DNA of 64,000 nt from Stomorhina lunata (lineage: Eukaryota; Arthropoda; Insecta; Diptera; Rhiniidae), in the NCBI GenBank assembly GCA_933228675.1, contig OW121742.1:105438240-105502239 (forward strand). Direction: 5' to 3'. Below, one piece after another: positions 8,830-60,758 of the stretch. Below the pieces are notes generated by a model. The model was not told the origin of the DNA. It saw nothing but the letters and a program-made list of their open reading frames with translations, and did not search any database. The translations under genes and the position numbers were made by a program. Positions within the stretch are counted from its first letter, which is position 1. Each line of letters opens with the position of its first letter.

Positions 8830-9059
8830 TATCTAGGACTTCGAACGATATCGAATGCGGTAATTTGGGCCCAGGTTTTTACCCAAGATAATAATAAACT
8901 ATACTAGCTATGGCCACTAAATTTAGTTCAAGGATTGTGCCAAATTTTGTCACAATCGGTCACCATTTGACCATAGCTCCCATATAAAAACTTACGGAAA
9001 CACAAGAATACCAAAAAGATAGGGAGTCCGCACGATAGCGTATTTAAAAAAAATACCTA
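8830..9059 (-). mobile_element. Dispersed repeat, distal piece of interrupted minus-strand copy
   Basis: Contains TTGACCATAGCTCCCATATA and TGCCAAATTTTGTCACAATC. On the minus strand these are the 'gggagctatggtcaaa...accgat...aaatttggcaca' modules also seen at 11156-11935 and 41663-42454. I infer it is the continuation of the 11156-11935 copy, split by the insertion at 9060-11153. Confidence 0.6.
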
Positions 9060-9067
9060 CACTCAGG

Positions 9068-9493
9068 GAAAAAACGTGCTGATAATAAGATTTTCTGCTT
9101 GAAATCGAAACCTTTTCTGCTTGAAAGTAGAGTAAATACGAAAAATCTAATTTTGAGAATAAAATCTTATTTTTTAAGATTCTTTGTAAGATCGCAATCT
9201 TAAAAAAAATCTAAGCACAGGATCGATAACTAAGAATGTGTTCTTATTAATTAAGATTAAATTCTTAATTTTTAAGAGTGCACTCTTAATTAATAAGAAC
9301 ATAATCTTAAATAATAAGAACGCATTCTTAATTATCGATCTTGTTCTTAGAACTTTTTTAAGATTGCGATCTTACAAACAATCTTGAAAAATAAGATTTT
9401 ATTCTTAAAATAAGATTTTTCGCATTTACTCTACTTTCAAGCAGAAAAGGTTTCGATTTCAAGCAGAAAATCTTATTTTAAGCACGTTTTTTC
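9068..9493. repeat. Long palindrome (about 213-bp arms)
   Basis: Left-arm blocks such as AAAAAACGTGCT (9069-9080), ATTTTCTGCTTGAAATCGAA and CTTGAAAGTAGAGTAAAT recur in inverted form at mirror positions (for example AGCACGTTTTTT at 9481-9492). The centre is TTAAGAGTGCACTCTTAA at 9280/9281, with essentially no spacer. Arms match apart from scattered substitutions. It could extrude a cruciform or yield a long double-stranded RNA. Confidence 0.9.
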
Positions 9494-9633
9494 TTATTAT
9501 CATATTCGTATTTGGTGGTAAAATAAAACACATTTTTTATTATTTTTTTCCCCTTTCGAGGAATGTAATAGTATTCCTATATTTTAAAATTTTGATTTAT
9601 TTATTTTACATTATAGGTAGTTAGTAAAAAATT

Positions 9634-10713
9634 TTATCCTAAAAATACCTTGACTTCATCTTCCGTTGGAAAAAGTGTGCATATTTCTGTCAATATATCT
9701 TGGAAATCGTGAGGATGAAGTGTGAGATCCTTTTTTAGAATTTGATGTACTATAATCTGGATCAGCTCATCACGATAGTTATTGTTTAAATCTTTGCGTG
9801 AAGCATAAAATTCTAGGATGTTTTTGCCACTTACTGATTCATTCAATAATGAAGCTAAATCCTATATAAATAAACGAAAATATTTTATTAAACAGTTTTA
9901 CTGTAGTGTATTGCACTAAGAATCCCAATTTATTACAATTATTTATTATTGTAATAAATAGTTTTTTGATAAAACCAAAAAATGTTGGTGGGGAAACCTT
10001 TCCTCGACGCGTTTCGATGGTTGGTTAGACCATCTCATCAGGAGGATTATCCCTAATTCTAGACAGAGCGAAAACCTCACATTATGTATAATTTGAGATA
10101 CTGAATAAATACGAATTATTATTATTGTGTCATTTATATTTTGTACACATTTAAATGTATTAAGTAATTATCTAATACTTTTACCTTGTCAAACACTTTT
10201 TTGTTAACTTCCACATTTACAGAAGACGATGAAGTGGAAGTTACATGTGGACATTTTTGTAGCCACTGACCTACCTTCGACGGCATCGAAAGTATATCTT
10301 CATCAATTTCAAACTAAAGGACAAAACTATTAGTGGTTTAATTTAATTTCTAAATAAAATATTAAAACCTGTTTATTTTTCCAGACAAATAATTTTTCAC
10401 TGCTTTCATATACTGCAGACTTCTAAAAGTTACATTTGAGCCTGAAACAAATTCAATTAATAAAATTTTTTATAAAGAAATTTACTTATGTATTTATAAA
10501 TATGATGAAAAACTTACGCTGCAGGTACGGAAAAACGCATTCCAGATCGAATTCTTTCAAAAGATTTTTCAGCAACGCGTCATCGTCCAAGAACGCTCAT
10601 GAAATTTCTTGTGAAGGGCAGTTCATTTCATACTCCCCATCACACACCGGAACTAAATTGCCTTCTATTGGAATATTTAAAAGGATCACTTCATTCGGAT
10701 TAAGGTTTTCCAT
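9634..10713 (-). pseudogene. Decayed four-exon gene inside the 2.1-kb element
   Basis: Read on the minus strand, a plausible ATG at 10713 opens exon 1 (10713-10518), ending at a canonical GTAAGT donor. Exon 2 (10441-10369) follows a TTTGTTTCAG acceptor. Exon 3 (10313-10185) ends in AAG/GTAAAAG and includes MPSKVGQWLQKCP. Exon 4 (9861-9634) follows a TATATAG acceptor and encodes about 75 residues, including LLNESVSGKNILEFYASRKD and a FPTEDEVKVFLG end. Introns are short (about 55-320 nt), as in flies. Breaks: an in-frame TGA at codon 39 (10597-10599), and a phase mismatch between exons 2 and 3. I do not recognise the protein with certainty; the C-terminal block resembles uncharacterised insect proteins linked to repeats, from memory only. 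It could be the element's own gene or a captured host gene. Confidence 0.5.
10001..10046 (-). ncRNA. Hammerhead ribozyme motif (type I, minimal stem III)
   Basis: On the minus strand, from 10046 down: stem I 5' strand TCCTC; core CTGATGA (10041-10035); stem II GATGGT/ACCATC (10034-10029 with 10021-10016) closing a 7-nt loop; core GAAA; stem III ACGCGT, self-complementary with only two potential pairs within one molecule; cleavage triplet GTC ending at 10006; stem I 3' strand GAGGA (10005-10001), fully paired with its partner. All invariant core positions are present. Such tiny stem III forms are known from Penelope-like elements and retrozymes and work best as dimers. It lies in the last intron of the decayed gene, transcribed in the same direction. 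Self-cleavage is predicted, not shown. Confidence 0.85.
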
Positions 10714-11155
10714 TTATATTTCTTATTAAATTTATATTTTTTCTCAAAAAATTAGTTTTTCACTTTTTCGCAACTACTTTGGTCGGCGGATTACAATTTA
10801 TGACCAAATACTGAGAAAGTTCCCTAAAACAAGCACACAAATCTACTAAATCAAGAATACGATTTTAAGATTAGAACTTACAATCTTCAAAATAAGAATA
10901 AAATCTTGAAATCAAGATCACAATCTTAAAATAAAGAATACGATCTAAAATTAAGATTTAAAATCTTATAATAAGATTAAAATCTTAAAAGCAAACAAAT
11001 TGCATGTTATTTTTAGATTGTATTCTCATAACTAAGAATTTATTCTTAAATTTAAGAATATAAATCTAACTGGCTATATTTTCAAGATTGAAAATTCAAG
11101 ATTTCGCAATCTTATATTTTTCTTAAAATCAGATCGTCATTTTTCTCTTAGTGTA

Positions 11156-11935
11156 GAGAGACAACAATTTTCAAAAGCATTTTTGATATCTTGAAAAGGT
11201 TGTGTATTCAAAATGGGCTAAATCGGTTTACCCTAATGCTGATAAATTGAATACAATTGAAATTGCTATGACGACTAAATTAAGAACATAGAAGTTTTAT
11301 GCAACTATTGGTCTGTATATAAAATTTCATAGGAATCGGTCCATATTTGACCATAGGCTCCATATAAAAACCACTCCCGGAAGCCAGTAATTTGATGAAA
11401 TTTGGCACAGATAATTTTTTCTATAGTGGGACCATGGCTATTGAAATTCGTCAAAATCGGTAAATTATTTACGGTACCTCCCATATTTCCCACTTCCCGG
11501 AATTGATATTTTGCTCACAATATCAGGTTTTTTCATGAAATTTAAAACAGATAATGCTTATGTAAATCAAAATCACTGAACCAAATTTCTTCTGTCCAAA
11601 CGCACTAAATAAGACAAAAATCTCTAAAACGCTCATAAATCTGAAGATAAGGAGAATTTTGAGTTTATTTTTTGTATACATAATTTTTGTTAAAATTGTA
11701 ATCAATTTGCTAAATTTCAAGATAGTCGGTCCACATTTGACCCTAGCTCTCATATAAGTCCAAATGACGAAAACAGCTTAAATATATAAATTTCGAAGAA
11801 ATGTTTGTATATTGGCCAAATTTAGCAAATATTTGTCTTTATGCAGAAAAAAAGAACACCTTTGGCCTTAGTGTTGAAGGGTATCGTATCGGGTCGGGTC
11901 GGGCTTGATCGGCTCTAGCACTTCCTTACTTGTTT
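11156..11935 (-). mobile_element. Dispersed repeat, proximal piece, minus orientation
   Basis: On the minus strand it begins AACAAGTAAGGAAGTGCTAG (from 11935) and is collinear with the plus copy at 41663-42454. Shared blocks include GATACGATACCCTTCAACAC, AAGACAAATATTTGCTAAAT, the 'ttatgagcgttttag' block and 'tgggaggtaccgtaaataat'. No protein-coding capacity. Copies like this, with 'ataccctt...' ends, are common in fly genomes (from general knowledge). Superfamily unassigned. Confidence 0.8.
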
Positions 11936-12301: not shown

Positions 12302-13585
12302 ATGGGTGTTTTTTTTAGAGGTATAGAACTTCGAATTGAAATAAAACACAAGAAAATCGTTTTAATGTCCATCAATTTGGCTTTATTGGAAGGATAATTT
12401 TATGCCATTAATGTTTAAATATGATTTCGGGCATGTGGCCGCCGCGGCTGGCTCGAATAAAGCCAATTCTACAGGTCCAATTTTCAACTACTTTTTCAAG
12501 AATATGGGGCCGTATGTTGGTAATAACGGCACGAATGTTGGCTTCCAAATCCCCTAACGTTTCTGGTTTGTTGGCGCAGACGAGCGACTTCACATATCCC
12601 TAAAGAAAATAATCCAGTGGTGTCAAATCGCACGATCTTGGTGGCCAATTGACAGGTCCATTCCGCGAAATTATGCGATCATCGAATGTTTCCTTCAATA
12701 AATCAATTGGGACGTGCGCTGTGTGGCATGTAGCGCCGTCTTGTTGGAACCACAACTCATCCACATTCATGCCATCCAATTAAGGAACAAAATAGTCGGT
12801 TATCATAGCTCTATACCGGTCTCCATTTATGGTAAATGTCTCTCCAGCATTATTTCGGAAGAAGTATGGCCCAATGACTCCACCAGCCCATAGAGCACAC
12901 CAAACAGTCAGTTTTTGTGGATGTAATGGCGTCTCAAGGGTCTCATGTGGATTCTTTTCACTCCAAATGCGGCAATTTTGCTTGTTGACGTAGCCATTCA
13001 TCCAAAAATGAGCCTCATCACTGAACAAAATTTTGCGATGAAAATCAGCATCGAGATCAATCTCATTTTCGGCCCATACACCAAAATCACGACGCATTGC
13101 ATGGTCTCGCGGCTTTAATTCTTGCACAAGCTGGATCTTGTAAGGTCGCAAGCCAAGATCTTTGTGCAAAATCTTCCATAAAGTTGATGGACAAAGCTCC
13201 AATTGCTGTGCACGGTGGTGAATCGATTCATTCGGGTCCTCTTCAACACTTTGCTCTACAGCGGCAATTGTTTCTTCGGTGCGCACTGTTCGACGTCGCT
13301 GCGGATGCGTATTATCACATAGAGTAAACGTAGTGCGAAAACGATCCATGGTTAACCGAATTATGTCGACCATAAAATGGACTGAGCTTGCGGTAAACTT
13401 CGCGAACTGAACCATTATTTTCGAAATAAATTTGCACGATTTGCAAGCGTTGTTCTTTTGTCAACCTGTTCATGATGAAATGGCAAACCAAACTAAATAT
13501 TAATCACTTGACAGCTGACAAAATGGCCGCCAGTTAAAAAAGTGATGCCAACTTAAAGTTCTATACCTCAATAAAAAACACCCGA
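12302..13585 (-). mobile_element. DD41D mariner (rosa-type), copy 1
   Basis: 1284-bp element flanked by TA (12300-12301 and 13586-13587). About 28-bp terminal inverted repeats begin ATGGGTGTTTTTT at the left and (inverted) TCGGGTGTTTTTTATTGAG at the right, both running into GAGGTATAGAACTT. Transposase lies on the minus strand. A second, related copy is at 17282-18479 in the same orientation. It interrupts a LINE. Confidence 0.93.
12408..13473 (-). pseudogene. DD41D mariner transposase, copy 1 (broken)
   Basis: The reading frame starts MNRLTKEQRLQIVQIYFEN at 13473 and ends ...IIFKH at 12408, about 350 codons. That is typical of mariner transposases, which bind the inverted repeats and cut and paste the element at TA. 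It has an N-terminal helix-turn-helix region and a catalytic domain with FSDEAHFW (first Asp), WFQQDGATCH (second Asp, codon 12738-12740) and TPLDYFL (third Asp, codon 12612-12614). There are 41 residues between the second and third Asp: DD41D, the signature of the rosa subfamily rather than DD34D mariner. Breaks: a stop at 12780-12782 (a Gln in copy 2), a stop at 12600-12602 in place of the usual Trp after the third Asp, and a small deletion near 13362 relative to copy 2. Inactive. Confidence 0.9.
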
Positions 13586-17281: not shown

Positions 17282-18479
17282 ATGGGTGTTTTTTTAGAGG
17301 TATAGAACTTCGAATTGAAATAAAACACAAGAAAATCGTTTCAATGTCCATCCATTTGGCTTTATTGGAAGGATAATTTTATGCCATTAATGTTTAAATA
17401 TGATTTCGAGCATGTGGCCGCCGCGGCTGGCTCGTATGAAGCCAATTCTACAGGTCCAATTTTCAACTACTTTTTCGAGCATATGGGGCCGCATGTTGGC
17501 AATAACGCCACGAATGTTGGCTTCCAAGTCCCCTAACGTTTCTGGTTTGTTGGCGTAGACGAGCGACTTGGTGGCCAATTGACAGGTCCATTCCGCGAAA
17601 TTATGCGCTCATCGAATGTTTCCTTCAATAAATCAATTGTTGGAACCACAACTCATCCACATTCATGCCATCCAATTGGGGAACAAAATAGTCGGTTATC
17701 ATGGCTCTATACCGGTCTCCATTTATGGTAACTGACTCTCCAGCATTATTTCGGAAGAAGTATGGCCCAATGACTCCACCAGCCCATAGAGCACACCAAA
17801 CAGTCAGTTTTTGTGGATGTAATGGCATCTCAAGGGTCTCATGTGGATTCTCTTCACTCCAAATGCGGCAATTTTGCTTGTTGACGTAGCCATTCAACCA
17901 AAAATGAGCCTCATCACTGAACAAAATTTTGCGATGAAAATCAGCATCGAGATCAATCTCATTTTCGGCCCATACACCAAAATCACGACGCATTGCATGG
18001 TCTCGCGGCTTTAATTCTTGCACAAGCTGGATCTTGTAAGGTCGCAAGTCCATAAAGTTGATGGACAAAGCTCCAATTGCTGTGCACGGTGGCGAATCGA
18101 TTCATTCGGGTACTCTTCAACACTTTGCTCTACAGCGGCAATTGTTTCTTCGGTGCGCACTGTTTGACGTCCCTGCGGATGCGTATTATCACATAGAGTA
18201 AACGTAGTGCGAAAACGATCCATGGTTAACCGAATTAATTGCTCTGATGGACGATTATGTCGACCATAAAATGGACAGAGCTTGCGGTAAACTTCGCGAA
18301 CTGAACAATTATTTTCGAAATAAATTTGCACGATTTGCAAGCGTTGTTCTTTTGTCAACCTGTTCATGATGAAATGGCAAACCAAACTAAATATTAATCA
18401 CTTGACAGCTGACAAAATGGCCGCCAGTTAAAAAAGTGATGCCAACTTAAAGTTCTATACCTCAACAAAAAACACCCGA
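17282..18479 (-). mobile_element. DD41D mariner (rosa-type), copy 2, internally deleted
   Basis: 1198 bp, flanked by TA (17280-17281 and 18480-18481), with the same terminal inverted repeats as copy 1. Relative to copy 1 it lacks about 50 bp near 17570, about 35 bp near 17639 (which removes the second catalytic Asp) and about 20 bp near 18050. It retains a ~16-bp segment near 18237 that copy 1 has lost. The deletions are therefore complementary, and each copy informs the ancestral sequence. Confidence 0.93.
17387..18367 (-). pseudogene. DD41D mariner transposase, copy 2 (deleted)
   Basis: Start MNRLTKEQRLQ at 18367, end ...IIFKH at 17387. Open segments: 18367-18011 (helix-turn-helix part), 18068-17625 (first catalytic Asp in FSDEAHFWLNGYVNKQNCRI, then up to DELWFQQ) and 17578-17387 (C-terminus with ETLGDLEANIRGVI). 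The block from the second Asp to beyond the third Asp is missing, so it cannot be catalytic. Confidence 0.9.
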
Positions 18480-29871: not shown

Positions 29872-31157
29872 CCCAACAAAACTTTGGTAATGGCAAGTAC
29901 TCTGATAATTGGTTACCTTGTAACGACTACAACATACCATCCGAATAAATAATAAGTTATTACAGAAGTACTTATTTGTAATTAAGATGGTAATTTAAAC
30001 TGAATGGCCCCAGTTCAAATCCCACCAAGGGCAACAATTTTTTGTAGTTTTTTTTTATTAAAAGAGTCTTTTTAAATGATTTTTGAATTTTAAGAACTTG
30101 AATATTATCTTCTGTAAAAAAAAAATTGTAAAACTAACTCACGTTAATGAAAAAATACCATCATGAGTCAATTTTGATTATCTAGGGGATGTTGAATACC
30201 AAACACGATTCTAATTGGTCTTAACTTGGTAAGCCCAACTTATCTGGGTCATCCTTCATCTCAACTGTGGACACACACCTCCTCATGGTATCACCCGGGG
30301 AGCTAGTTTAACACCCATTAATATTGTGAGTTAACATGTTCCGAGAGTTGTCCCATAAGATCGATAAAAATGGGTTAGGATTAGGGGCTAGTAACCCTCT
30401 CTTGAAAAAAAAAATACAATGAAGAGGATAAAATTAGAATTGAAATGTCCCACTACCTAATGTTAGAGGAGGATGTCCGAAACTTCGATATAAGGACCAA
30501 GTAGAGGAACATTTTTCAAAGCTTGGCCTATAAAATTGGAGAATATTCGCACAAGATCGAAATCCATGGAATTCTAAAATATGCTCGGACTTTGACCTTA
30601 ACAGGTTGTAACATTTAAGTAAGTAAGAGTCAATCTTATGTAAAAACTTATACAAAAAAGAAGATATAAATTTTAAAAAAGTTTTAAAATAATTACAAAA
30701 AATTGTATAAAAATATTTTTCCAAAAATTACAACAAAGCAAAAAAAAGTAGAGAAAAACAAAGTTATTTTCACATGATTTTGGATCTAAAAATAAAAAAA
30801 TTGTTTATATTAATTATAATCTGCTAAGTTTTCAACATATGGAGTAGCTCAGTGGAAGAGTCTCTGCCTAGCAGTCGGAGGGTCTGGGTTCGAGCCCCCA
30901 TCGGATCATAAAAAAAATTTTGTATTTCGTTTAAAAATATATGTTTTTAATAAAACAACAAAAAAAAAAGTTGTTGCTGTTGTTGTTGTTGCTTTCAAAT
31001 TGCTTACTTAAGTCTTACTTTTCTGCAATTGGTAAGTACTTGCCTCCAATGACATCCCCATGTTAATGTAATGACTTAAACAGCGAATGAGTAAGTAGTT
31101 CGTGTTCAATAGTTTAACTGTTTAACTCATTATTTGGTAATGAAAAGTTTTACTGGG
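29872..31157 (+). mobile_element. 1.3-kb TIR element with tRNA-like module, copy A
   Basis: Termini CCCAACAAAACTTT (29872) and AAAGTTTTACTGGG (to 31157) with TA on both sides (29870-29871, 31158-31159). It contains, in order: a B-box-like CAGTTCAAATCCC near 30015; a captured LINE C-terminus (GCCCNI-type end at about 30464-30620, including KTK and 'vskSQS' tail); an A-rich stretch; a tRNA-like sequence (30838-30908); and (GTT)n near 30970. No transposase of its own. Two further full copies are at 31274-32576 and 44020-45321. Confidence 0.85.
30838..30908 (+). other. tRNA-like module in element A
   Basis: TAGCTCAGTGG fits the pol III A box and GGTTCGAGCCC the B box, at tRNA spacing. An anticodon-arm-like CTCTG...CGGAG stem encloses CCTAGCA. 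The acceptor ends do not pair well, so this is a tRNA-derived sequence rather than a functional tRNA gene. Also present at 31522-31595 (minus), 32585-32655 (plus) and 44269-44342 (minus). Confidence 0.75.
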
Positions 31158-31273: not shown

Positions 31274-32576
31274 CACAGTAAAACTTTTTATTACCAAATA
31301 ATGAGTTAAACAGTTAAACTATTGAACACGAACTACTTACTCATTCGCTGTTTAAGTCATTACATTAACATGGGGATGTCATTGGAGGCAAGTACTTACC
31401 AATTGCAGAAAAGTAATGACTTGGGTAAGCAATTTGAAAGCAACAACAACAACAGCAACAACTTTTTTGTTGTTGTTTTATTAAAAACATATATTTTTAA
31501 ACGAAATACAAAATTTTTTTTATGATCCCATGCGGGCTCGAGCCCAGACCCACCGACTGCTAGGCAGAGACTCTTCCACTGAGCTACTTCATATGTTGAA
31601 AACTTAGCAGATTATAATTAATATTAACAATTTTTATTTTTAGATCCAAAATCATGTGAAAATAACTTCGTTTTTCCCTGCTTTTTTTTGCTTTGTTGTA
31701 ATTTTTGGAAAAATATTTTTATACGATTTTTTGTAATTATTTTAAAACTTTTTTAAAATTATTTTAAAACTTAAACAATTTAAATCTTCTTTTTTGTATA
31801 AGTTTTTATATAAGATTGACTCTTACTTACTTAAATGTTACAACCTGTTAAGGTCAAAGTCCGAGCATATTTTAGAATTCCATGGATTTCGATCTTGTGC
31901 GAATATTCTCCAATTTTATAGGCCAAGCTTTGAAAAATGTTCCTCTATTTGGTCTTTCTATCGAAGTTTCGGACATCCTCCTCTAACATTAGGTAGTGGG
32001 ACATTTCAATTCTAGTTTTATCCTCTTCATTGTATTTTTTTTCAAGAGAGGGTTACTAGCCCGTAATCCTAACCCATTTTTATAGATCTTATGGGACAAC
32101 TCTCGGAACATGTTAACTCACAATATTAATAGGTGTTAAACTAGCTCCCCGGGTGATACCATGAGGAGGTGTGTGTTCACAGTTGAGATGAAGGATGACC
32201 CAGATAAGTTGGGCTTACCAAGTTAAGACCAATTAGAATCGTGTTTGGTATTCAACATCCCCTAGATAATCAAAATTAGCTCATGATGGTATTTTTTCAT
32301 TAACGTGAGTTAGTTTTACAATTTTTTTTTACAGAAGATAATATTTAAGTTCTTAAAATTCAAAAATCATTTAAAAAGACTCCTTTAATAGAAAAAAAAA
32401 CTAAAAAAAATTGTTGCCCTTGGTGGGATTTGAACCGGGGCCATTCAGTTTAAGTTACCATCTTAATTACAAATAAGTACTTCTGTAATAACTTATTATT
32501 TATTCGGATGGTATGTTGTAGTCGTTACAAGGTAACCAGTTATCAGAGTACTTGCCATTACCAAAGTTTTGCTGGG
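31274..32576 (-). mobile_element. 1.3-kb TIR element, copy B (inserted in C)
   Basis: Full-length minus-oriented copy running from CACAGTAAAAC (slightly altered terminus) to GTTTTGCTGGG. Comparison with copy A shows the target was AAGTTTTCAAC and that TT is duplicated, instead of the usual TA. It carries the same tRNA-like module and LINE tail as copy A. Confidence 0.85.
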
Positions 32577-42710: not shown

Positions 42711-42975
42711 TCAATACAAGTCGTAATAGTCTTAGCATACGACGTCTTAGTCTTATCTTTCTAAGTTCAGTCAGTCAGTTCAGTCTTGGTCTAAGATGTT
42801 AAAGTCCTAGTATAAGAAGTTTAAGCTTTATATTTAGGCAAGCAGGTATTAATATAAGATGTAAAGGGTGGTTAAATTGTAAGGGCCGATGTTGAATGTG
42901 AACCACACCTAAACGCCAAGTTTTTTTCCGAATTTTATTTGACATTTGAACCATGGAGAGATACACATTTGAACC

Positions 42976-44019
42976 ATGGAGAGATACGCAATCCAACAAC
43001 GTGTTAAAGTTATCCAGACTTATTATGAAAATGGGCGTTCAAATCAAAATGCATATCGTGCACTTCGTGATTTTTTTTGGTCAATTTGATCGTCCAAATG
43101 TGCGTACAATCGCAAAAATCGTGGAAAAATTCGAACATACCGGGTCTTTAGAAGATGTGAGAACACCAGTGAATGCTCGTACAGCTCGTACTGCAGAAAA
43201 TATTGCTGCAGAGCCGTCCACCTCAACTCGTCGTCGTGCCCAACAATTGCACCTCTCACGCTCGTCGTTGATGAACATTATGCATAAAGACTTGCATTTA
43301 CACGCTTACAAGGTGCAATTGGCTCAAGAACTAAAGCCTCTTGACCATTTCAAACGTCGCGAATGGGCAGAATGGTGGCAAGAAATGATCAACAGTGGAT
43401 GATCAATTTTCGAAGAAAATCATCTTCAGTGATGAGGCACATTTTCACCTCCGTGGATTCGTCAATAAACAGAATTGCCGCATTTGGGCGAATGAGAATC
43501 CAAGAGTGATTGTCGAACCAATGCACCCACAAAGAGTGACTGTTTGGTGCGGTTTATGGGCCGTATTTTTTCCAAAATGAGGCCGGTCAGGCAGTTACTG
43601 TGAATGGTGTTCGCTATCGTGAAATGATAACGAACTTTTTATGGCCCGAATTGGAAGATATGTGGACGATATGTGGTTTCAGCAGGACGATGCCACTTGC
43701 CACACACAGCTAACGAAACAATGGCTCTTTTGCGCAACAAATTCAATGGCCGTGTTATCTCACGTAATGGCGATGTCAATTGGCCGCCAAGATCATGTGA
43801 TTTGACACTGCTGGACTTTTTTCTTTGGAGTTATTTGAAAGAAAAGGTGTACGTCGATAAGCCAGCAACAATTCAAGAGCTAAAGAATGAGATAATTCCG
43901 CACATTAACGGCATAGAACCTCCATTATGCCTCAGGGTCATCGAAAATTTGAACCATCGGATGGAGGTGTGCCGCTGTAGTCGCGGCGCCCATTTGGCCG
44001 ATATTTTGTTCCATACATA
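42976..44019 (+). pseudogene. DD41D mariner transposase, second lineage (frameshifted)
   Basis: Likely start at 42976 (MERYAIQQRVKVIQTYYENG). The frame is lost in a T-run near 43073, again near 43390-43400, near 43570 (deletion after GLWA) and at a CA repeat near 43710. Catalytic motifs remain: FSDEAHFHLRGFVNKQNCRI (first Asp), FQQDDATCH (second) and LLDFFLWSYLKEKV (third). Allowing for the CA-repeat shift there are 41 residues between second and third Asp. The C-terminus ADILFHT ends at a TAA whose TA is the insertion site of element D (44018-44019). Cut-and-paste transposase, now dead. Confidence 0.88.
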
Positions 44020-45321
44020 CCCAGTAAAACTTTTCATTACCAGATAATGAGTTAAACAGTTAAACTATTGAACACGAACTACTTACTCATTCGCTGTTTA
44101 AGTCATTACATTAACATGTGGATGTCATTGGAGGCAAGTACTTACCAATTGCAGAAAAGTAATGACTTGGGTAAGCAATTTAAAAGCAACAACAACAAGA
44201 GCAACAACTTTTTTGTTGTTGTTTTATTAAAAACATATATTTTTAAACGAAATACAAAATTTTTTTTATGATCCCATGCGGGCTCGAACCCAGACCCTCC
44301 GACTGCCAGGCGGAGACTCTTCCACTGAGCTACTTCATATGTTGAAAACTTAGCAGCTTATAATTAATATAAACAGTTTTAATTTTTAGATCCAAAATCA
44401 TGTGAAAATAACTTTGTTTTTCCCTGCTTTTTATTTTTGCTTTGTTGTAATTTTTGAAAAAATATTTTTATACGATTTTTTGTAATTATTTTAAAACTTT
44501 TTTAAAATTATTTTAAAACTTAAACAATTTAAATCTTCTTTTTTGTATAAGTTTTTACATAAGATTGACTCTTACTTACTTAAATGTTACAACCTGTTAG
44601 AGTCAAAGTCCGAGCATATTTTAGAATTCCATGGATTTCGATCTTGTGCGAATATTCTCCAATTTTATAGGCCAAGCTTTGAAAAATGTTCCTCTATTTG
44701 GTCTTTCTATCGAAGTTTCGGACATCCTCCTCTAACATTAGGTAGTGGGACATTTCAATTCTAATTTTATCCTCTTCATTGTATTTTTTTTTCAAGAGAG
44801 GGTTACTAGCCCGTAATCCTAACCCATTTTTATCGATCTTATGGGACAACTCTCGGAACATGTTAACTCACAATATTAATGGGTGTTAAACTAGCTTCCC
44901 GGGTGATACCATGAGGAGGTGTGTGTCCACAGTTGAGATGAAGGATGACCCAGAAAAGTTGGGCTTACCAAGTTAAGACCAATTAGAATCGTGTTTGGTA
45001 TTCAACATCCCCTACATAATCAAAATTGACTCATGATAGTATTTTTTCATTAACGTGAGTTAGTTTTACAAATTTTTTTTACAGAAGATAATATTTAAGT
45101 TCTTAAAATTCAAAAATCATTAAAAAGACTCTTTTAATAAAAAAAAAAACTAAAAAAAATGGTTGCCCTTGGTGGGATTTGAACCGGGGCCATTCAGTTT
45201 AAATTACCATCTTACAAATAAGTACTTCTGTAATAACTTATTATTTATTCGGATGGTATGTTATAGTCGTTACAAGGTAACCAGTTATCAGAGTACTTGC
45301 CATTACCAAAGTTTTGCTGGG
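44020..45321 (-). mobile_element. 1.3-kb TIR element, copy D
   Basis: From CCCAGTAAAACTTTTCATTA to GTTTTGCTGGG, with TA at both sides (44018-44019 and 45322-45323). Same layout as copy A, reversed: tRNA-like module at 44269-44342, LINE tail at about 44560-44770, B-box-like block near 45170. Very similar to copies A and B. Confidence 0.9.
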
Positions 45322-48049: not shown

Positions 48050-51000
48050 GACTATAGTCGTAGAGACTATAGTCGAAGGGACTATATACGAAGGGACTAA
48101 AGACGAAGGACTATAGTAGAAGGGACTATAGTCGAAGGGACTTTAGTCGAAGGGACTATAGACGATGGGCTATAGTGGAAGGGACTATAGTCGAAGGGAT
48201 TATAGTCGAAGGGACTATAGTCAAAGGGACTATAGTCGAAGGGACTATAGTAGAAAGGACTATAGTCGAAGGGACTATAGTCGAAGGGACTATAGGTGAA
48301 GGGACTATAGTCGAAGGAACTACAATCGAAGGGACTATAGTCGAAGGGACTATAGACGAAGGCTATAATAGAAGGGACCGAAGGGACTATAGTCGAAGTG
48401 AATATATTTGAAGGGACTTAAGGCGAAGAAACTATAATCGAAGGGACTTTAGTCGAAGGGACTATAGTCGAAGGGACTATAGTCGAAGGGACTATAGTCG
48501 AAGGGGCTATAGTCGAAGGGACTATTGTTGAGGGGACTATTGTTGAGGGGAATATAGTCGAAGGGACTATAGTCGAAGGGACTATAGTCGCAGGGACTAT
48601 AGTCGAAGGGACTATAGTCGAAGGGACTATAGTCGAACGGACTATAGTCGAACGGACTATAGTCGAAGGTACTATAGTCGAAGGGACTATAGTCAAAGGG
48701 ACTAGGGGACTATAGTCGAAGGCACTATAGTTGAAGGGACTATAGTCGAAGGGACTATATTCGAAGGGACTATATTCGAAGGGACTATAGTCGAAGGGAC
48801 TATAGTCGAAGGCTCGATAGTTGAAGGGACTATAGTCGAAGGGACTATAGTTAAAGGGACAAAAGTCGAAGGGACTATAGTCGAAGGGACTATTCTTCGA
48901 AGGGATAAAAGTCGAAGGGACTGTAGTCGAGGGGACTATATTCGAAGAGAGTATTTCGAAGGGACTATAGTCGAAGGGACTATAGTCGAGGGACTATATT
49001 CGAAAGGACTATATTCGATGGGACTATAGTCGAAGGGACTATAGTCGAAGTTACTATAGTCGAAGGGACTACAGTCGAAGGGACTATAGTCGAAAGGAAT
49101 ACTGTCGAAGGGACAATAGTCGAAAGGACTATAGTCAAAGGGACTATAGTCGAAGGGACTATAGTCGAAGGGACTATAGTCGAAGGGACTATAGTCGAAG
49201 GGACTATAGTCGAAGGGACTATTGTCGAAGGGACTATAGTCGAAGGAACTATAGTCGAAGGGACTATAGTCGAAGGGACTATTGTCGAAGGGACTACAGT
49301 CGAAGGGACTATAGTCAAAGGGACTAGGGGACTATAGTCGAAGGCACTATAGTTGAAGGGACTATAGTCGAAGGAACTATATTCGAAGGGACTATAGTCG
49401 AAGGGACTATATTCGAAGGGACTATAGTCGAAGGGACTATAGTCGAAGGGACTATATTCGAAGGGACTATAGTTGAAGGGACTATAGTCGAAGGGACTAT
49501 AGTTAAAGGGACAAAAGTCGAAGGGACTATAGTCGAAGGGAATATTCTTCGAAGGGATAAAAGTCGAAGGGACTGTAGTCGAAGGGACTATATCGAAGGG
49601 ACTATAGTCGAAGGGACTATAGTCGAGGGACTATATTCGAAAGGACTATATTCGATGGGACTATAGTCGAAGGGACTATAGTCGAAGTTACTATAGTCGA
49701 AGGGACTACAGTCGAAGGGACTATAGTCGAAAGGAATACTGTCGAAGGGACTATAGTCGAAAGGACTATAGTCAAAGGGACTATAGTCGAAGGGACTATA
49801 GTCGAAGGGACTATAGTCGAAGGGACTATAGTCGAAGGGACTATAGTCGAAGGGACTATAGTCGAAGGGACTATTGTCGAAGGGACTATAGTCGAAGGAA
49901 CTATAGTCGAAGGGACTATAGTCGAAGGGACTATAGTCGAAGGGATTGTAGTCGAAGGGACTATAGTCGAAGGGACTATAATCGAATGGATTATAGCCGA
50001 AGGGGTAAAAATTCGCACCGAATTCCAGTTCATTGTAAGTAGGTTTTTTGTAACTATAACTAAGAAAGAGACTATAGTCGAAGGGACTACAGTCGAAGGG
50101 ACTATAGTTGAAAGGACTGTTGTCGAAGGGACTTTAGTCGAAAGGACTAAGTCGAAGGGACTATAGTCGAAGGGACTATAGTCGAGGGGACTATAGTCGA
50201 AGGGCCTATAGTCGAAGGGCCTATAGTCGAAGGGACGATAGTCGAAGGGACTATAGTCGAAGGGACTATAGTCGAAGGGACTATAGTCAAAGGGACTATA
50301 GTCGAAGGGACTATAGTCGAAGGGACTATAGTCAAAGGGACTATAGTCGAAGGGACTATAGTCGAAGGGACTATAGTCGAAGGGACTATAGTCGAAGGGA
50401 CTATAGTCGAAGGGACTATAGTCGAAGGGACGATAGTCGAAGGGACTATAGTCGAAGGGACTATAGTCGAAGGGACTATAGTCAAAGGGACTATAGTCGA
50501 AGGGACTATAGTCGAAAGGACTATAGTCGAAGGGACTATAGTCGAAGGGACTATAGTTGAAAGGACTATTGTCGAAGGGACTATAGTAGAAAGGACTATA
50601 GTCGAAGGGACTATAGTCGAAGGGACTATAGTCGAAGGGACTATAGTCGAAGGGACTATAGTCGAAGGGACTATAGTCGAAGGGACTATAGTCGAAGGGA
50701 CTATAGTCGAAGGGACTATAGTCGAAGGGACTATAGTCGAAGGGACTATAGTCGAAGGGACTATAGTCGAAGGGATTGTAGTCGAAGGGACTATAGTCGA
50801 AGGGACTATAATCGAATGGATTATAGCCGAAGGGGAAAAAATTCGCACCGAACTCCAGTTCATTGTAAGTAGGTTTTTTGTAATATAACTAAGAAAGAGA
50901 CTATAGTCGAAAGGATTATAGTCGAAGGGACTATAGTCGAAGGGACTATAGTCGAAGGGACTATAGTCGAAGGGACTATAGTCGAAGGGACTATAGTCGA

Positions 51001-51108
51001 AGGGACTATAGTCGAAGGGACTATAGTCGAAGGGACTATAGTCGAAGGGACTATAGTCGAAGGGACTATAGTCGAAGGGACTATAATCGAATAGACTATA
51101 TTCGAATG
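48050..51108. repeat. 15-bp satellite array with higher-order structure
   Basis: Unit TCGAAGGGACTATAG, containing the perfect palindrome GACTATAGTC across the junction. Higher-order repeats are visible: variants such as GGGACTAGGGGAC recur at 48701 and 49323 (622 bp apart) and TCGAGGGACTATATTC at 48986 and 49623 (637 bp apart, one unit longer). A unique spacer containing ATTCGCACCGAA and CCAGTTCATTGTAAGTAGG recurs at about 50010, 50845 and 51117. Open frames encoding repeated PSTIV or YSPFD are by-products of a unit divisible by three. Confidence 0.97.
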
Positions 51109-52120
51109 GGAATAAAATTCGCACCGAATTCCAGTTCATTGTAACTAGCTTTTTTGTAACTATAAGAAAGAATCACAAGAATTTTAGCTTCCACCTTTAA
51201 GAGCTCGAAGTTATAAAAATCACATAAATCCCCACATTTGTATAAAAATCGTGGCACTGTTCTTCAATTCCGAAAATAACTTGAGGTTAAAATTTGAAGT
51301 TGACACAAAAAAAACTACCAACTTTTTTTGACAGCAGCAGCAGCAAATGACATGATTATTTCTCTTTTAAAAATTCATTATAAAAACGTAATTTATAATG
51401 TTAAATTCTTAAACAAATAGAAGATGGGAAAGAAGTAAGATTCAAAAATTAAATTAAAACAAAATAAGAAATCATAACAATAAAATATAAAGCTTATGGT
51501 AACGTTAAGTATAATATCATTACAAGAAAAAAGAAATATAATGAAAATAAAACACAATTGTTGGTTGGTATTAAAAAGTTTAACAAAAACTTTTTTTAAC
51601 AAATTTAATAATAAATTCTGCAAAAAGAAAAATGCTGTAGCATTAAAAATTTTAAATTAAATAAATAATATTTTCTGCTAAATTACGGGTATTTAATGAA
51701 CAAATGCAATTATTTTTAATATAAATTTTTAACAAATTGTTGCTAATTTTTAAGAAAGCGTGAAATCTTTGTTAATTTAAAGTTTTTTCAACCTGAAATT
51801 TTCTCATGTAGAAATTTGAGAAATTTATGGAATATTTTGGTATAAATATAAATGAAGACAGCTAAACACTTATTTGAAAACTAAGTATCTGGACACTTAT
51901 TTAATGACTAAACGAATTCCTTGGCTTAAATCAAGCGTGCTTATATCGATTGACGTCAACTGTTGTGTGGTACCACTGATTAGGCATAATTCAAATAAAA
52001 AGCGAGAAAAGATGATCAGACTAAAATTTTGCCTCTTATTCAAATTCTTAAGATAAATATTTAGTCAAAATTTAAATCAGACTAACAAGAACTAATGAAG
52101 AACCAAACTAGGTCTAAACT
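51109..52120. other. AT-rich spacer
   Basis: Starts with the last copy of the higher-order spacer (to about 51175). The rest shows no supported feature. Confidence 0.5.
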
Positions 52121-55404: not shown

Positions 55405-57990
55405 AATTTTAATATCAGTGTTAGTATCAGCAGTATCAGAATTAGTATCAGTATAAGTATTAGTATCATCATTAGTATCAGTATTAGTATCAGTATTAGT
55501 GTCAGTATTAGTATCAGTATTAGTATCAGTATTAGTATCAGTATTAGTATCAGATTTAGTATCAATATTTGTATCAATATTATTTATATCTGTATCAGTT
55601 ACTAGCTGCATTATTACCAGTATTAGTATCAGTATAAGGATCAGTTATAGTATAAGTATCAGTATTAGTATAAGTATTAGCATCAGTATTAGTATCAGTA
55701 TTAGTACCAGTATAAGTATCAGTATTAGTATCAGTTTTAGTATTAGTTTCAGTATAAGAATAAGTATCAGTATCAGTATAAGTATCAGTATTATTATCAG
55801 TATTAGTAGCACTATTTGCAATATTTATACTGGTATCAGTATAAGTTATAGCATAAGTAGCAGTTCAAGTATCGGTATTAGTATTTATATCAGTAAAAAA
55901 ATCAGTATTTGTATTAGTATCAGTGTTAGTATTATTAATAGTATTAGTATCAGTATTTGTGTAAGTATTAGTATCAGTATTTGTATCAGTGTTAGTAATA
56001 CTGACATAAGTATCACTATTAGATTCAGTGTTAGTATTAGTCACTGTATTAGTATCAGTATTAGTGTCAGTATTAGTAGCAGTATTAGCATCAGTATATT
56101 CATTAGTAATACTGATATAAGTATCACTATTAGAGTCAGTGTTAGTATTAGTAAAACTGATATTAGTATCGGCATTATAATCAGTATTGGTATTAGCATT
56201 AGAATCAATATTAGTATCAGTAACATTATTAGTAAGAGTATTTGTGTCAGTATTACTATCAGTATTAGTAACAGTATTAATATCAGTATTAGTATCAGTA
56301 TTAGTATCAGTATTAGTATCAGTATTAGTATCAGTATTAGTATCAGTATTAGTATCAGTATTAGTATCAGTATTAGTATCAGTGTTAGTAATACTGATTT
56401 AAGTATCACTATTAGAATCAGTATTACTATTAGTAAAACTGATATTACTATTGGTATTTGAATCAGTATTAGTTTCAGTTTTTATATTTATATCAGTATT
56501 TGTATCAGTATTAGTGTTAGTATCAGTATAAGAATCAGTATTAGTATCAGTATTAGTATCAGTATTAGTATCAATATTAGTATCAGTATTAATATCAGTA
56601 TTAGTATCAGAATTAGTATCAGTAGTAGTAGCAGTATTAGTATCAGTACTAGTATCAGTATTAGTATCACTATAAGTATCAGTATTGGTATAAGTGTCAG
56701 CATCTTTATTACTAGCAGCTTTATTATCTGTAATAGTGTCAGTATTAGTATCAGTATTAATATCAGGAAAAGTATTAGCATCGGTACTAGTACAAGTATC
56801 AGTATTAGTATCAGTTATAGTATAAGTAATCAGTAATAGTATTAGTATCAGTTATAGTATCAGTAATCAGTAATAGTATCAGAATTAGTAACAATAATAG
56901 CATTAGTATCAGTAATAGTATTAGTATCAGTATTAGTTTCAGTATTAGTATCAGTATAAGTATCAGTATAAGTATTAGTATCAGTGTTAGTATCAAGATT
57001 AGTATCAGTATAAGTAGCAATAATAGTATCAGTATTAGTATCAGTATAAGTATCAGTTTTATTATCAGTATAAGTATCACTATTAGTTTTAGTATCACTA
57101 TTAGTATCTGTACTAGTATCAGTATTAGCATCATTATTAGTATCAGTATTTGTATAAGTGTCAGTATTATTAGTGTCAGCATCTGTATTACTAGCAGCTT
57201 TATTACCAGTATTAGTTTCAGTATTAGTATCAGTATTAATATCAGGATTAGTATTAGTGTCGGTGTTAGTATCAGTATTAGTATCAGTGTAAGTATTAGT
57301 ATCAGTATTAGTATCAGTATTAATATCAGTAATAGTATTGGTATCAGTATAAGAATCAATATTAGTATCAGTATTAGTTTCAGTAATAGTTCTAGTATCA
57401 GTAACAGAATTAGTATCAGTAACAGTATTAGTATCAGTACCCCTATTAGTATCAGTATTAGTATCAGTACTAGTATCAGTATTAGTGTCAGTAATGGTAT
57501 CAGTAATAGTATTAGTATAGTATATTAGTATAGTATATAAGTATCAGTAATAGTATTAGTACCAGTATTTATATCAGTATTAGTATCAGTATTAGTATCA
57601 GTGTTAGTATAAGTAATAGTATTATTATCAGTATTAGTATCAGTATTGGTAATACTGTAGAATCAGTATTAGTATCAGTATTTGCATCAGCGTTAGTGTC
57701 AATACAATTATTAGTATAAGTGTCAGTATTATTAGTATTATCATCAGTATTGGTATTAGTATTATTATTAGCATAATTATTAGTATCAATATTAGTGTCA
57801 GTATTATAAGGATAAACTTCAGTATTGGTATCAGTATTTCTAGAAGCATTATTACTAGTATTAATATTGATACCTGCATTGTAATAATTCTTATAATCGG
57901 TATTAGTATCTATGTTTGTATCAATATAAGTACTACTTTAAGTATTAGTATTAGCATAGGAGCCAGGATTAATAATCAGTATAAGTAAAA
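55405..57990. repeat. 12-bp satellite array (TATCAGTATTAG)
   Basis: Imperfect tandem array of TATCAGTATTAG with frequent substitutions and 6-bp slips. It is most regular at about 56270-56390. Open frames encoding poly-(SI), poly-(LI) or poly-(VS) on both strands follow from the 12-bp period and are not genes. Confidence 0.95.
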
Positions 57991-59135: not shown

Positions 59136-60758
59136 CACCATGTTACGAAAGTCTACATACGATCATGGAATACTTGAAAATTACGAAAAAATAAAAGAAA
59201 GTTAATATTTTTTTGTACCAAATGTTTATTGATGATTAAAGAGATCAAAATTAAATTAAAATTAAGGCAATTCATGAACGTCAAATCACATAAATTAAAA
59301 AAAATCATCACATATTCATATTTGTAATGTTACGAAAGTCTACATACGGCTTCTTTTGAACAAAAATTTCTACAGCATTAGTATCGAGTTGGTCCACCAT
59401 TGGCCTTAATTACTTCCTTAAGTCGGGATGGCATGGATAAAGCTAAATTTTTTGTAACTTCTGGAGAAATCTTTTCCCATTCTTCCAGTAAAACCGTTTT
59501 TAGCGAATTGACCGATGTAACGTTCTTTCTCTCACCTTGTTTTTCAGATGTGCCCACAAATGTTCAATAACATTGAGGTCAGGTGATTGCGGAGGGTGGT
59601 CAAGCTTGGATCTCACGTTATATAACAGCCATTCTTTAAACAAGGCAGAACTATGCTTCGGGTCGTTGTCGTGCATGAAGACATAAATTTCGCTTAAGTG
59701 AAGTTTTTCGACACTTCCAATGAGATGTGTTTTTAGAATGTTTAAATACATGTACCGATCCATTATGCCTTCAATAAACCGCAATTTTCCAACACCATTT
59801 GCTGCCATACATCCCCACACCATCACAGATCCACCTCCATGTTTAACAGTTGGACAGATATTTTTGGGCTGAAGTGCTGTGTTTCGTTTTCTCCAAACTC
59901 TTGCAGGTCCATCTCTTCCGAAGACGTTAAATTTACATTCGTCAGTGAAAATAACGCGCGACCAAAAAGTTGGGTCGTCAATATGTTTATTTTCAAGCTG
60001 TTTGGCGTAACTCAAACGTTTTTTTCGGTTCACTTTGCTTATCAAAGGTTTCTTCCGTGCAACTCGTGAAGCTAGGCCTGCCTTTTTTAAACTTTTTCGA
60101 ACACATTGAGCATGTACTTCTATTCCGTCGAACTCTTCTAACGATTTTGCTAATTTTACAGCACTAACTTTTGGATTTTCTGTCGCATACCTCACAACTT
60201 TCCTCTGCATCCGATCGTCAAGTTTACATGGCCGACCACTTCTTGGCTTACTTTCAAAAAATCCAGTGGAATTATAATTTTTAATTATCGTTTGCACCGT
60301 AGACTTACACAAACCTAATATTTCAGCCACCTTAGAAAATGAGTTTCCTTCATTTTTAAGTTTCACGGCTGCTTGGCGTAACTGAGGGGCAATCTCCTTT
60401 CTTTTTGACATTTTTTGCACAAAATTCTTAAAATAAACCAATTATTCTTATTATCACATTGAATGTCGCAATGTAACTAAGAATTAAAGAAGAAAAACAA
60501 ACATTAAAAATCAAGAGATCCAATGGGACTTTTCTTCAAAACTGATCGTATGTAGACTTTCGTTACATTGCTTGTTGTGTTATTATATGTTTTTTCTCGT
60601 TTTATGGGGAAAGGAGTTATGATGTTGATTTTATTTCTTTTTCATAATGTACTAGAACTGTACTTACATCATGCTAAAAGAGTACTAAGCGAATAATATC
60701 AAAAACTTTTAAATAATGCTTAAAATTAATATCGTATGTAGACTTTTGTAACATGGTG
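59136..60758 (-). mobile_element. Tc1-type transposon with IR/DR ends
   Basis: 1623 bp flanked by TA (59134-59135 and 60759-60760). Outer repeats: CACCATGTTACGAAAGTCTA at the left and, inverted, CACCATGTTACAAAAGTCTA at the right. Each end carries a second copy of the 22-bp motif that starts ATGTTACGAAAGTCTACATA: 59140-59161 and 59327-59348 at the left, 60547-60568 and 60733-60754 (inverted) at the right. Spacing is 187 and 186 bp. This is the IR/DR layout of Tc1-family elements such as Sleeping Beauty. Nearly intact; the transposase has a C-terminal frameshift. Confidence 0.95.
59378..60411 (-). pseudogene. Tc1-type DD34E transposase with C-terminal frameshift
   Basis: Likely start at 60411 (MSKRKEIAPQLRQAAVKL), ten codons inside the longer open frame that begins at 60441. 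Two N-terminal helix-turn-helix modules (paired-like) include the linker SKPRSGRPCKL. The catalytic domain has VIFTDECKFN (first Asp), HGGGSVMVWGC, FMHDNDPKHSS (second Asp) and SPDLNVIEHLWAHLK (Glu), with 34 residues between the second Asp and the Glu: DD34E. The frame ends at a TAA at 59500. One base off, the normal Tc1 C-terminus continues (EEWEKISPEV, then SMPSRLKEVI, ending near GGPTRY at 59378). A single-base deletion near 59500-59515 would explain this. Otherwise nearly intact, so a fairly young insertion. Confidence 0.92.

What the first reader, a model, noticed from the sequence alone, without database searches (positions are those of the whole stretch)
10001..10046. Complete hammerhead ribozyme motif inside an intron of a transposon gene
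Seen directly: every invariant hammerhead core base is present on the minus strand (CTGATGA, GAAA, GTC cleavage site), with a fully paired 5-bp stem I, a 6-bp stem II and a self-complementary ACGCGT stem III. Known: minimal stem III hammerheads occur in Penelope-like elements and retrozymes and act as dimers. Unusual here: it lies between exons 3 and 4 of a spliced gene in a TA-target DNA element, on the sense strand of that gene, without visible reverse transcriptase or a second hammerhead. It may be a fossil of a Penelope or retrozyme insertion, or a ribozyme that has travelled with a DNA transposon.
Basis: partly seen in the sequence, partly recalled or inferred. Interest (0 to 1): 0.88.

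Follow-up and report, generated by a model that had tools for sequence, protein, structure and literature searches.

The report
Hammerhead ribozyme motif in transposon intron
A tiny self-cutting RNA motif (a hammerhead ribozyme) is spelled out intact inside an intron of an apparently decayed gene in what looks like a DNA transposon; it looks real rather than accidental, but it is most likely a passenger left by another mobile element and belongs to a known class.

Summary
The minus strand at 10053-9991 spells a type I hammerhead: every core base, a 6-bp stem II and 5-bp stem I (all Watson-Crick), and a self-complementary ACGCGT stem III. Strict chance expectation is about 4e-6 per window, about 3e-4 with G-U pairs. 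Against: Rfam's type I model gives 22.0 bits, below its cut-off of 34, and the free-energy fold does not form the core. No second hammerhead, no array at the motif, no reverse transcriptase in 53 of 90 ORFs scanned. The motif lies in a GC-richer block of an AT-rich intron, sense to an apparently decayed five-exon gene, in a 2.1-kb TA-flanked inverted-repeat element. Best reading: a real type I hammerhead with dimer-prone stem III, left by a hammerhead-bearing retroelement and carried along. Palindromic stem III (Aedes), intronic hammerheads (human) and stem I-II pseudoknots are published. The genome search for copies did not complete.

The parts
10035..10041 (-). CUGAUGA catalytic core box
   Evidence: sequence; one of 5 CTGATGA in the window, both strands
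10016..10034 (-). stem II, 6 Watson-Crick bp (GAUGGU/ACCAUC), with 7-nt loop II CUAACCA; AACC at 10026-10023 could pair with GGUU of the stem I internal loop
   Evidence: loop complementarity
10013..10015 (-). GAA of the GAAA core box (A15.1 at 10012)
10007..10012 (-). self-complementary ACGCGU stem III: one A-U pair with CGCG loop as monomer, 6 bp as dimer
   Evidence: dimer reading inferred from published newt, axolotl and Aedes cases
10005..10006 (-). predicted cleavage between C17 (10006) and 10005
   Evidence: inference from the hammerhead consensus (recalled)
10042..10046 (-). stem I inner helix, 5' strand UCCUC
10001..10005 (-). stem I inner helix, 3' strand GAGGA
9995..10000 (-). 3' strand of the stem I internal loop AAGGUU; GGUU 9998-9995 complementary to AACC of loop II
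   Evidence: chance probability about 0.04-0.065
10050..10053 (-). stem I outer helix GGGA, 5' strand (UAA bulge 10049-10047)
   Evidence: chance probability about 0.19-0.28, so weak evidence alone
9991..9994 (-). stem I outer helix UCCC, 3' strand
9983..10081 (-). GC-richer block around the motif, borders set by eye (motif 9990-10053 0.516, 10054-10081 0.393, intron flanks 0.175)
   Evidence: Fisher p 0.011 for the 28 nt 5' of the motif against the flanks
9862..10184 (-). intron 3 of the gene (323 nt; the other introns are about 55-76 nt)
   Evidence: GT/AG borders
9478..10713 (-). apparently decayed five-exon gene (exons 10713-10518, 10441-10369, 10313-10185, 9861-9649, 9576-9478, borders read by eye), weakly similar to DUF4769
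   Evidence: TGA in frame in exon 1; no homologue at E<=1 for exons 3-5
9060..11153 (-). putative DNA transposon with about 32-bp imperfect terminal inverted repeats (CACTNAGNGAAAAA...) flanked by TA
   Evidence: 3 of 5000 shuffles, 65 of 5000 random window pairs align as well

Best explanation
The motif is a genuine type I hammerhead ribozyme of the animal, mobile-element kind, with a minimal palindromic stem III. It most likely arrived as a short remnant of a hammerhead-bearing retroelement (a Penelope-like element or a non-LTR retrozyme) in an intron of a DUF4769-like gene, before or after that gene came to lie in a DNA transposon, and now moves as a passenger. Mechanism: when the gene's strand is transcribed, the intron RNA would fold into the three-helix core, helped by a GGUU-AACC contact between stem I and loop II, and cut itself after C at 10006. 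As a monomer stem III is a single pair, so cutting should be weak; two copies in one RNA or in trans could pair their ACGCGU ends. Shown: sequence, stems, complementarity, strand, rarity by chance. Inferred: folding, cleavage, origin, passenger status.
For: All core bases and two all-Watson-Crick stems; about 4e-6 strict and 2.6e-4 relaxed expectation per window; Rfam Hammerhead_1 aligns over its whole length to 10047-10000, 22.0 bits, E 0.0016 in 101 nt. By my scaling of that E-value this is about 2e-4 for one family over 64 kb, close to the relaxed simulation. A 4-bp loop II to stem I complementarity not used in the descriptor fits the published pseudoknot hammerheads (PMC3088659; PMC7936874, where stem I is 5 bp and stem II 6 bp, as here). 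GC-richer block in a 17.5% GC intron. Palindromic stem III is reported for repeat-borne hammerheads (PMC3088659, PMC7229834).
Against: Below Rfam's curated cut-off. Free-energy fold does not form the core (-19.4 against -16.6 kcal/mol for the hammerhead fold without the single stem III pair, -11.1 with it; z -1.29; 29 of 200 shuffles fold as well). No tandem array at the motif, no significant target duplication (662 of 3000 shuffles as good), no reverse transcriptase in the 53 of 90 ORFs scanned, no second copy in the window, nothing in the viral or prokaryotic collections with strict patterns. The published Aedes motif of this style did not cleave as tested (PMC3088659). No evidence from the source genome.
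Confidence: 0.6

Rival explanations
1. Chance: an AT-rich intron happens to spell the motif, and it has no ancestry in hammerhead elements.
For: The bare core is expected 0.19 times per window; with G-U pairs the full motif is expected about 2 times per 500 Mb, and a scan over many windows would select such cases; Rfam score below cut-off; folding energy ordinary; no second copy in the window.
Against: All 11 pairs of stems I and II are Watson-Crick; strict expectation 4e-6 per window, about 0.03 per 500 Mb by my scaling; extra loop complementarity; GC-richer block extends beyond the motif.
Confidence: 0.18
2. The ribozyme is a working part of the DNA element or of its gene: it cuts the pre-mRNA inside the intron and so controls splicing or expression, as proposed for the conserved intronic hammerheads of amniotes.
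For: Sense orientation in a short gene with GT/AG borders; intact core while the gene is decayed; intronic precedents C10orf118 and RECK (PMC3088659).
Against: The gene copy looks broken, so there is little left to regulate; a monomer with a single-pair stem III should cut weakly; an intact 60-nt motif in a decayed copy is also expected without selection if it is young; no other copies seen.
Confidence: 0.1
3. The motif belongs to the lineage of atypical hammerheads that occur in HDV-like circular RNAs of termite and toad and in termite and dipteran genomes (5-bp stem I, internal loop, 6-bp stem II, Watson-Crick loop contact), here in a circularly permuted, type I form.
For: Same stem sizes and a loop contact on the equivalent strand, the one that follows the cleavage site (GGUU/AACC here, GCCR/YGGC in the toad and termite; PMC7936874 sections 9 and 10).
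Against: Those are type III with open stem III and a hairpin-capped stem I; here stem III is closed and palindromic. The loop contact has a chance probability of 0.04-0.065. No sequence homology tested.
Confidence: 0.12

Closest known systems
Repeat-borne hammerheads with palindromic stem III, e.g. Aedes aegypti (Perreault et al. 2011, PMC3088659; passages read)
   Same: Palindromic stem III that could pair in a dimer; insect genome (for the window this is my inference)
   Different: Those are in multicopy interspersed repeats; here a single copy in a transposon intron. The Aedes motif tested there did not cleave. Sequences not compared.
Axolotl retrozyme hammerhead HHR_Amex1 (Cervera and de la Pena 2020, PMC7229834; passages read)
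   Same: Stem III of one base pair capped by a palindromic tetraloop; type I
   Different: There in 330-bp tandem repeats giving circular RNA; no tandem repeat here. Sequences not compared.
Minimal hammerheads of Penelope-like elements (PMC6155905, passages; PMC11167929, passages)
   Same: Nearly absent stem III
   Different: No terminal repeat or reverse transcriptase found here; here a possible loop contact, which those usually lack according to PMC6155905
Intronic hammerheads of amniotes, C10orf118 and RECK (PMC3088659 and PMC6155905, passages)
   Same: Type I in an intron; C10 uses a stem I-II pseudoknot
   Different: Those are conserved in host genes; this one is in an apparently decayed transposon-borne gene
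Atypical termite/toad/dipteran hammerheads (PMC7936874, sections 9 and 10 read in full, other passages)
   Same: 5-bp stem I, internal loop, 6-bp stem II, Watson-Crick loop I-II complementarity
   Different: Type III there, type I here

Membership tests
Hammerhead ribozyme (type I) | invariant core CUGAUGA, GAAA and UH cleavage site in type I order | tested here: met
Hammerhead ribozyme (type I) | stems I and II around the core, stem III closed | tested here: met
   6 bp, 5 bp, and ACGCGU closed by A-U only as monomer
Hammerhead ribozyme (type I) | reaches Rfam gathering score (RF00163, 34 bits) | tested here: not met
   22.0 bits; no hit. The minimal stem III may explain part of this (inference). 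A curators' cut-off, not a biological definition
Hammerhead ribozyme (type I) | contact between stem I and loop II (common, not universal) | tested here: inconclusive
   4-bp GGUU/AACC complementarity, chance 0.04-0.065
Hammerhead ribozyme (type I) | self-cleavage | not testable with these tools
   needs in vitro transcription
Penelope-like element | reverse transcriptase / GIY-YIG ORF between terminal repeats | tested here: inconclusive
   none in 53 of 90 ORFs >=75 aa scanned with Pfam; no repeat of the motif's surroundings in the window
Non-LTR retrozyme | tandem repeats of 150-450 bp each with a hammerhead | tested here: not met
   single motif, no array at the motif
Non-LTR retrozyme | target-site duplication around the insert | tested here: inconclusive
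   best direct repeat matched by 662 of 3000 shuffles
TA-target inverted-repeat DNA transposon (9060-11153) | terminal inverted repeats and TA target duplication | tested here: met
   3 of 5000 shuffles and 65 of 5000 random window pairs align as well, so not overwhelming
TA-target inverted-repeat DNA transposon (9060-11153) | transposase of its own | tested here: not met
   no Pfam transposase in the gene's pieces or in the two ORFs >=75 aa inside; it may be non-autonomous
TA-target inverted-repeat DNA transposon (9060-11153) | further copies in the genome | not tested
   The genome search did not complete; no second full copy in the window

The most novel reading that the evidence does not exclude
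A DNA transposon family carries a hammerhead as a standing part of its gene: a type I motif with a Watson-Crick stem I-loop II pseudoknot and a dimer-forming stem III that cuts the element's own intron, so that a ribozyme is spread and kept by a cut-and-paste element rather than by reverse transcription.
Probability: 0.07. Interest if true: 0.75.

Novelty: new member of a known kind. Interest (0 to 1): 0.42.

Why it matters
In the passages I saw, animal hammerheads are tied to retroelements, satellite or tandem repeats, HDV-like circular RNAs or conserved sites in host genes; a few in termite genomes are isolated motifs. A copy inside a cut-and-paste transposon would show one way such ribozymes can be scattered into new places without reverse transcription. 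Two paper searches for a hammerhead with a DNA or inverted-repeat transposon (and 2 papers listed) showed no title or abstract start that describes one; I looked at passages of two of these papers (PMC8490949; PMC6431247) and opened none of the others. PMC8490949 reports hammerheads in schistosome W-elements and, in one W-element, a partial similarity to a DNA transposon.

Tried and rejected
Type III reading: Rfam type III matched 10069-10006 at 15.6 bits, E 9.8, but by eye the upstream bases do not pair with the stem III 3' strand, the type III branch of my scan found nothing, and type I was the best of the clan in the narrow scan.

Two viral-contig matches to a short core pattern (L001 and L002) do not show stems like the window's (by eye; ORFs listed); treated as chance. 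Stricter patterns found nothing in the viral or prokaryotic collections, nor did the flanking 20-mer. These collections are poor places for insect DNA, so the blanks say little.

SINE promoter boxes: no A-box match; best B-box match has 4 mismatches. Retroelement insertion borders: no significant target duplication. The miRNA hits of Rfam at 9084-9488 come from the AT-rich palindrome region and are below their gathering scores.

The relaxed '4/4' count (0.0049 per window) is inflated because it let stem II close with no loop; I use only its 5/5 and 6/5 counts.

Papers: of the searches I opened eight papers: PMC7229834, PMC11167929, PMC7936874, PMC6155905, PMC8490949, PMC6431247 and PMC3088659 (the last by DOI) as passages, with two sections of PMC7936874 in full; PMC4209133 is not held, so seven were seen. 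The Penelope hammerhead paper itself was therefore not read.

Full report
What is there. The minus strand from 10053 to 9991 reads GGGA UAA UCCUC | CUGAUGA | GAUGGU CUAACCA ACCAUC | GAA | ACGCGU C | GAGGA AAGGUU UCCC. That is a type I hammerhead: open end in stem I, stem II of 6 bp, stem III closed by a self-complementary ACGCGU, cleavage expected after C at 10006. It did not report a second, outer helix of stem I (GGGA/UCCC) or a 4-base complementarity, GGUU in the stem I internal loop to AACC in loop II.

Is it more than chance? The bare core is not: one match, 0.19 expected. With stems it is. Sampling flanks from the window's own dinucleotide frequencies, the motif with stem II >=6 and stem I >=5 and G-U pairs allowed is expected 2.6e-4 times per window (1,089 of 24 million samples), and with Watson-Crick pairs only 4e-6 times (20 of 28.2 million samples). 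A direct simulation gave 8 loose hits and none with both stems >=5 in 9,600 strands; predicts about 3 of the latter there, so the estimates agree only roughly. The descriptors were fixed after seeing the motif and the window was presumably one of many read, so these are orders of magnitude. Rfam points the same way: type I 22.0 bits, E 0.0016 for 101 nt and 4,227 families; scaled by me to one family and 64 kb this is about 2e-4. But 22.0 is below the curated 34, nothing reaches gathering in the window, and in a 2.2-kb stretch the listed hammerhead was type III at E 9.8.

Features outside the descriptor. The loop II to stem I complementarity has a chance probability of 0.04-0.065, the outer helix 0.19-0.28. 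The 28 nt just 5' of the motif have 39% GC against 17.5% in the rest of the intron (Fisher p 0.011; borders chosen by eye), so a block somewhat larger than the motif looks foreign to the intron. Against: the minimum-free-energy fold pairs the core away (-19.4 against -16.6 kcal/mol without the single stem III pair, -11.1 with it), and 29 of 200 shuffles fold as well.

Surroundings. The motif lies in intron 3 (9862-10184, 323 nt; the other introns about 55-76 nt) of a five-exon gene on the same strand. The gene looks decayed: TGA in frame in exon 1 and a phase mismatch between exons 2 and 3 (borders). Its later exons match Pfam DUF4769 at 17.9 bits, cut-off 23.9; a protein search with exons 3-5 found no homologue at E<=1. 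The enclosing element has imperfect inverted repeats of about 32 bp next to TA (3 of 5000 shuffles and 65 of 5000 random window pairs align as well). No transposase was found in it. No second hammerhead, allowing one core mismatch, no copy of the 36-nt core with up to 3 mismatches, no repeat elsewhere in the window that overlaps the motif; matches to the rest of the intron are at most 32 nt; no tandem array at the motif. No reverse transcriptase in 53 of 90 ORFs scanned; the other 37, mostly in simple repeats, were not scanned.

What it most likely is and does. A real type I hammerhead of the mobile-element kind, with the palindromic stem III that may let such motifs work as dimers. Published cases: Aedes aegypti and Nematostella motifs that did not cleave as tested and might need dimers (PMC3088659, passages), and an axolotl repeat with a one-pair stem III and palindromic tetraloop that cut 6% in one hour as a monomer and far better as a dimer (PMC7229834, passages). 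In this place it would cut the intron of the gene's transcript weakly, if at all. The carrier that brought it is unknown: no retrozyme array, no Penelope parts, no target duplication.

How known is it? Intronic hammerheads (human C10orf118 and RECK) and predicted stem I-II pseudoknots in about 40% of hammerheads are in PMC3088659 (passages). A termite/toad/dipteran class with 5-bp stem I, 6-bp stem II and a Watson-Crick loop contact is in PMC7936874 (sections 9 and 10); those are type III, this is type I. My searches for a hammerhead in a DNA transposon listed nothing on point by title or abstract start. So: a new member of a known kind, in an uncommon place. That the window is from an insect, probably a fly, is my inference from its transposases and AT content; no call named the organism.

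The missing test. Copies in the same genome would settle reality, carrier and selection. The genome search did not complete in 22 calls (and its pattern was badly chosen), and the whole genome was not available as a file.

Noticed in passing
9068-9493: Near-perfect palindrome: two 213-nt arms, 91% complementary with no spacer, forming one end of the element and reaching exon 5. Looks like an inverted duplication of the element's end.
   Followed up: partly
10848-11063: AT-rich subterminal array of about 20-nt units with TAAGATT/AATCTTA palindromes.
   Followed up: no
12780-13460, 17625-18397, 42950-44047: Mariner-like transposase remnants (the label is recalled). Pfam gives DUF4817 for 18014-18385 and, below cut-off, for 42953-43399; no Pfam match for the other three pieces.
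   Followed up: partly
59500-60441: Tc1-like transposase ORF, open over 313 aa, with HTH_Tnp_Tc3_2 and DDE_3 domains.
   Followed up: partly
30437-30727 (-), 31746-32012 (+), 44495-44761 (+): Three short ORFs match the same part (about 284-350) of the Pfam Mononegavirales polymerase profile at 12.4-16.6 bits, all below the cut-off of 27. May be compositional noise, a shared repeat, or old viral fragments.
   Followed up: no
48073-51172 and 55457-57543: Long low-complexity arrays open in several frames, e.g. TIVPS and SIS/LIL repeats.
   Followed up: no
8942-8991, 11322-11371: A 50-nt repeat, 78% alike, lies outside both ends of the element, so the element may sit inside an older repeat.
   Followed up: no
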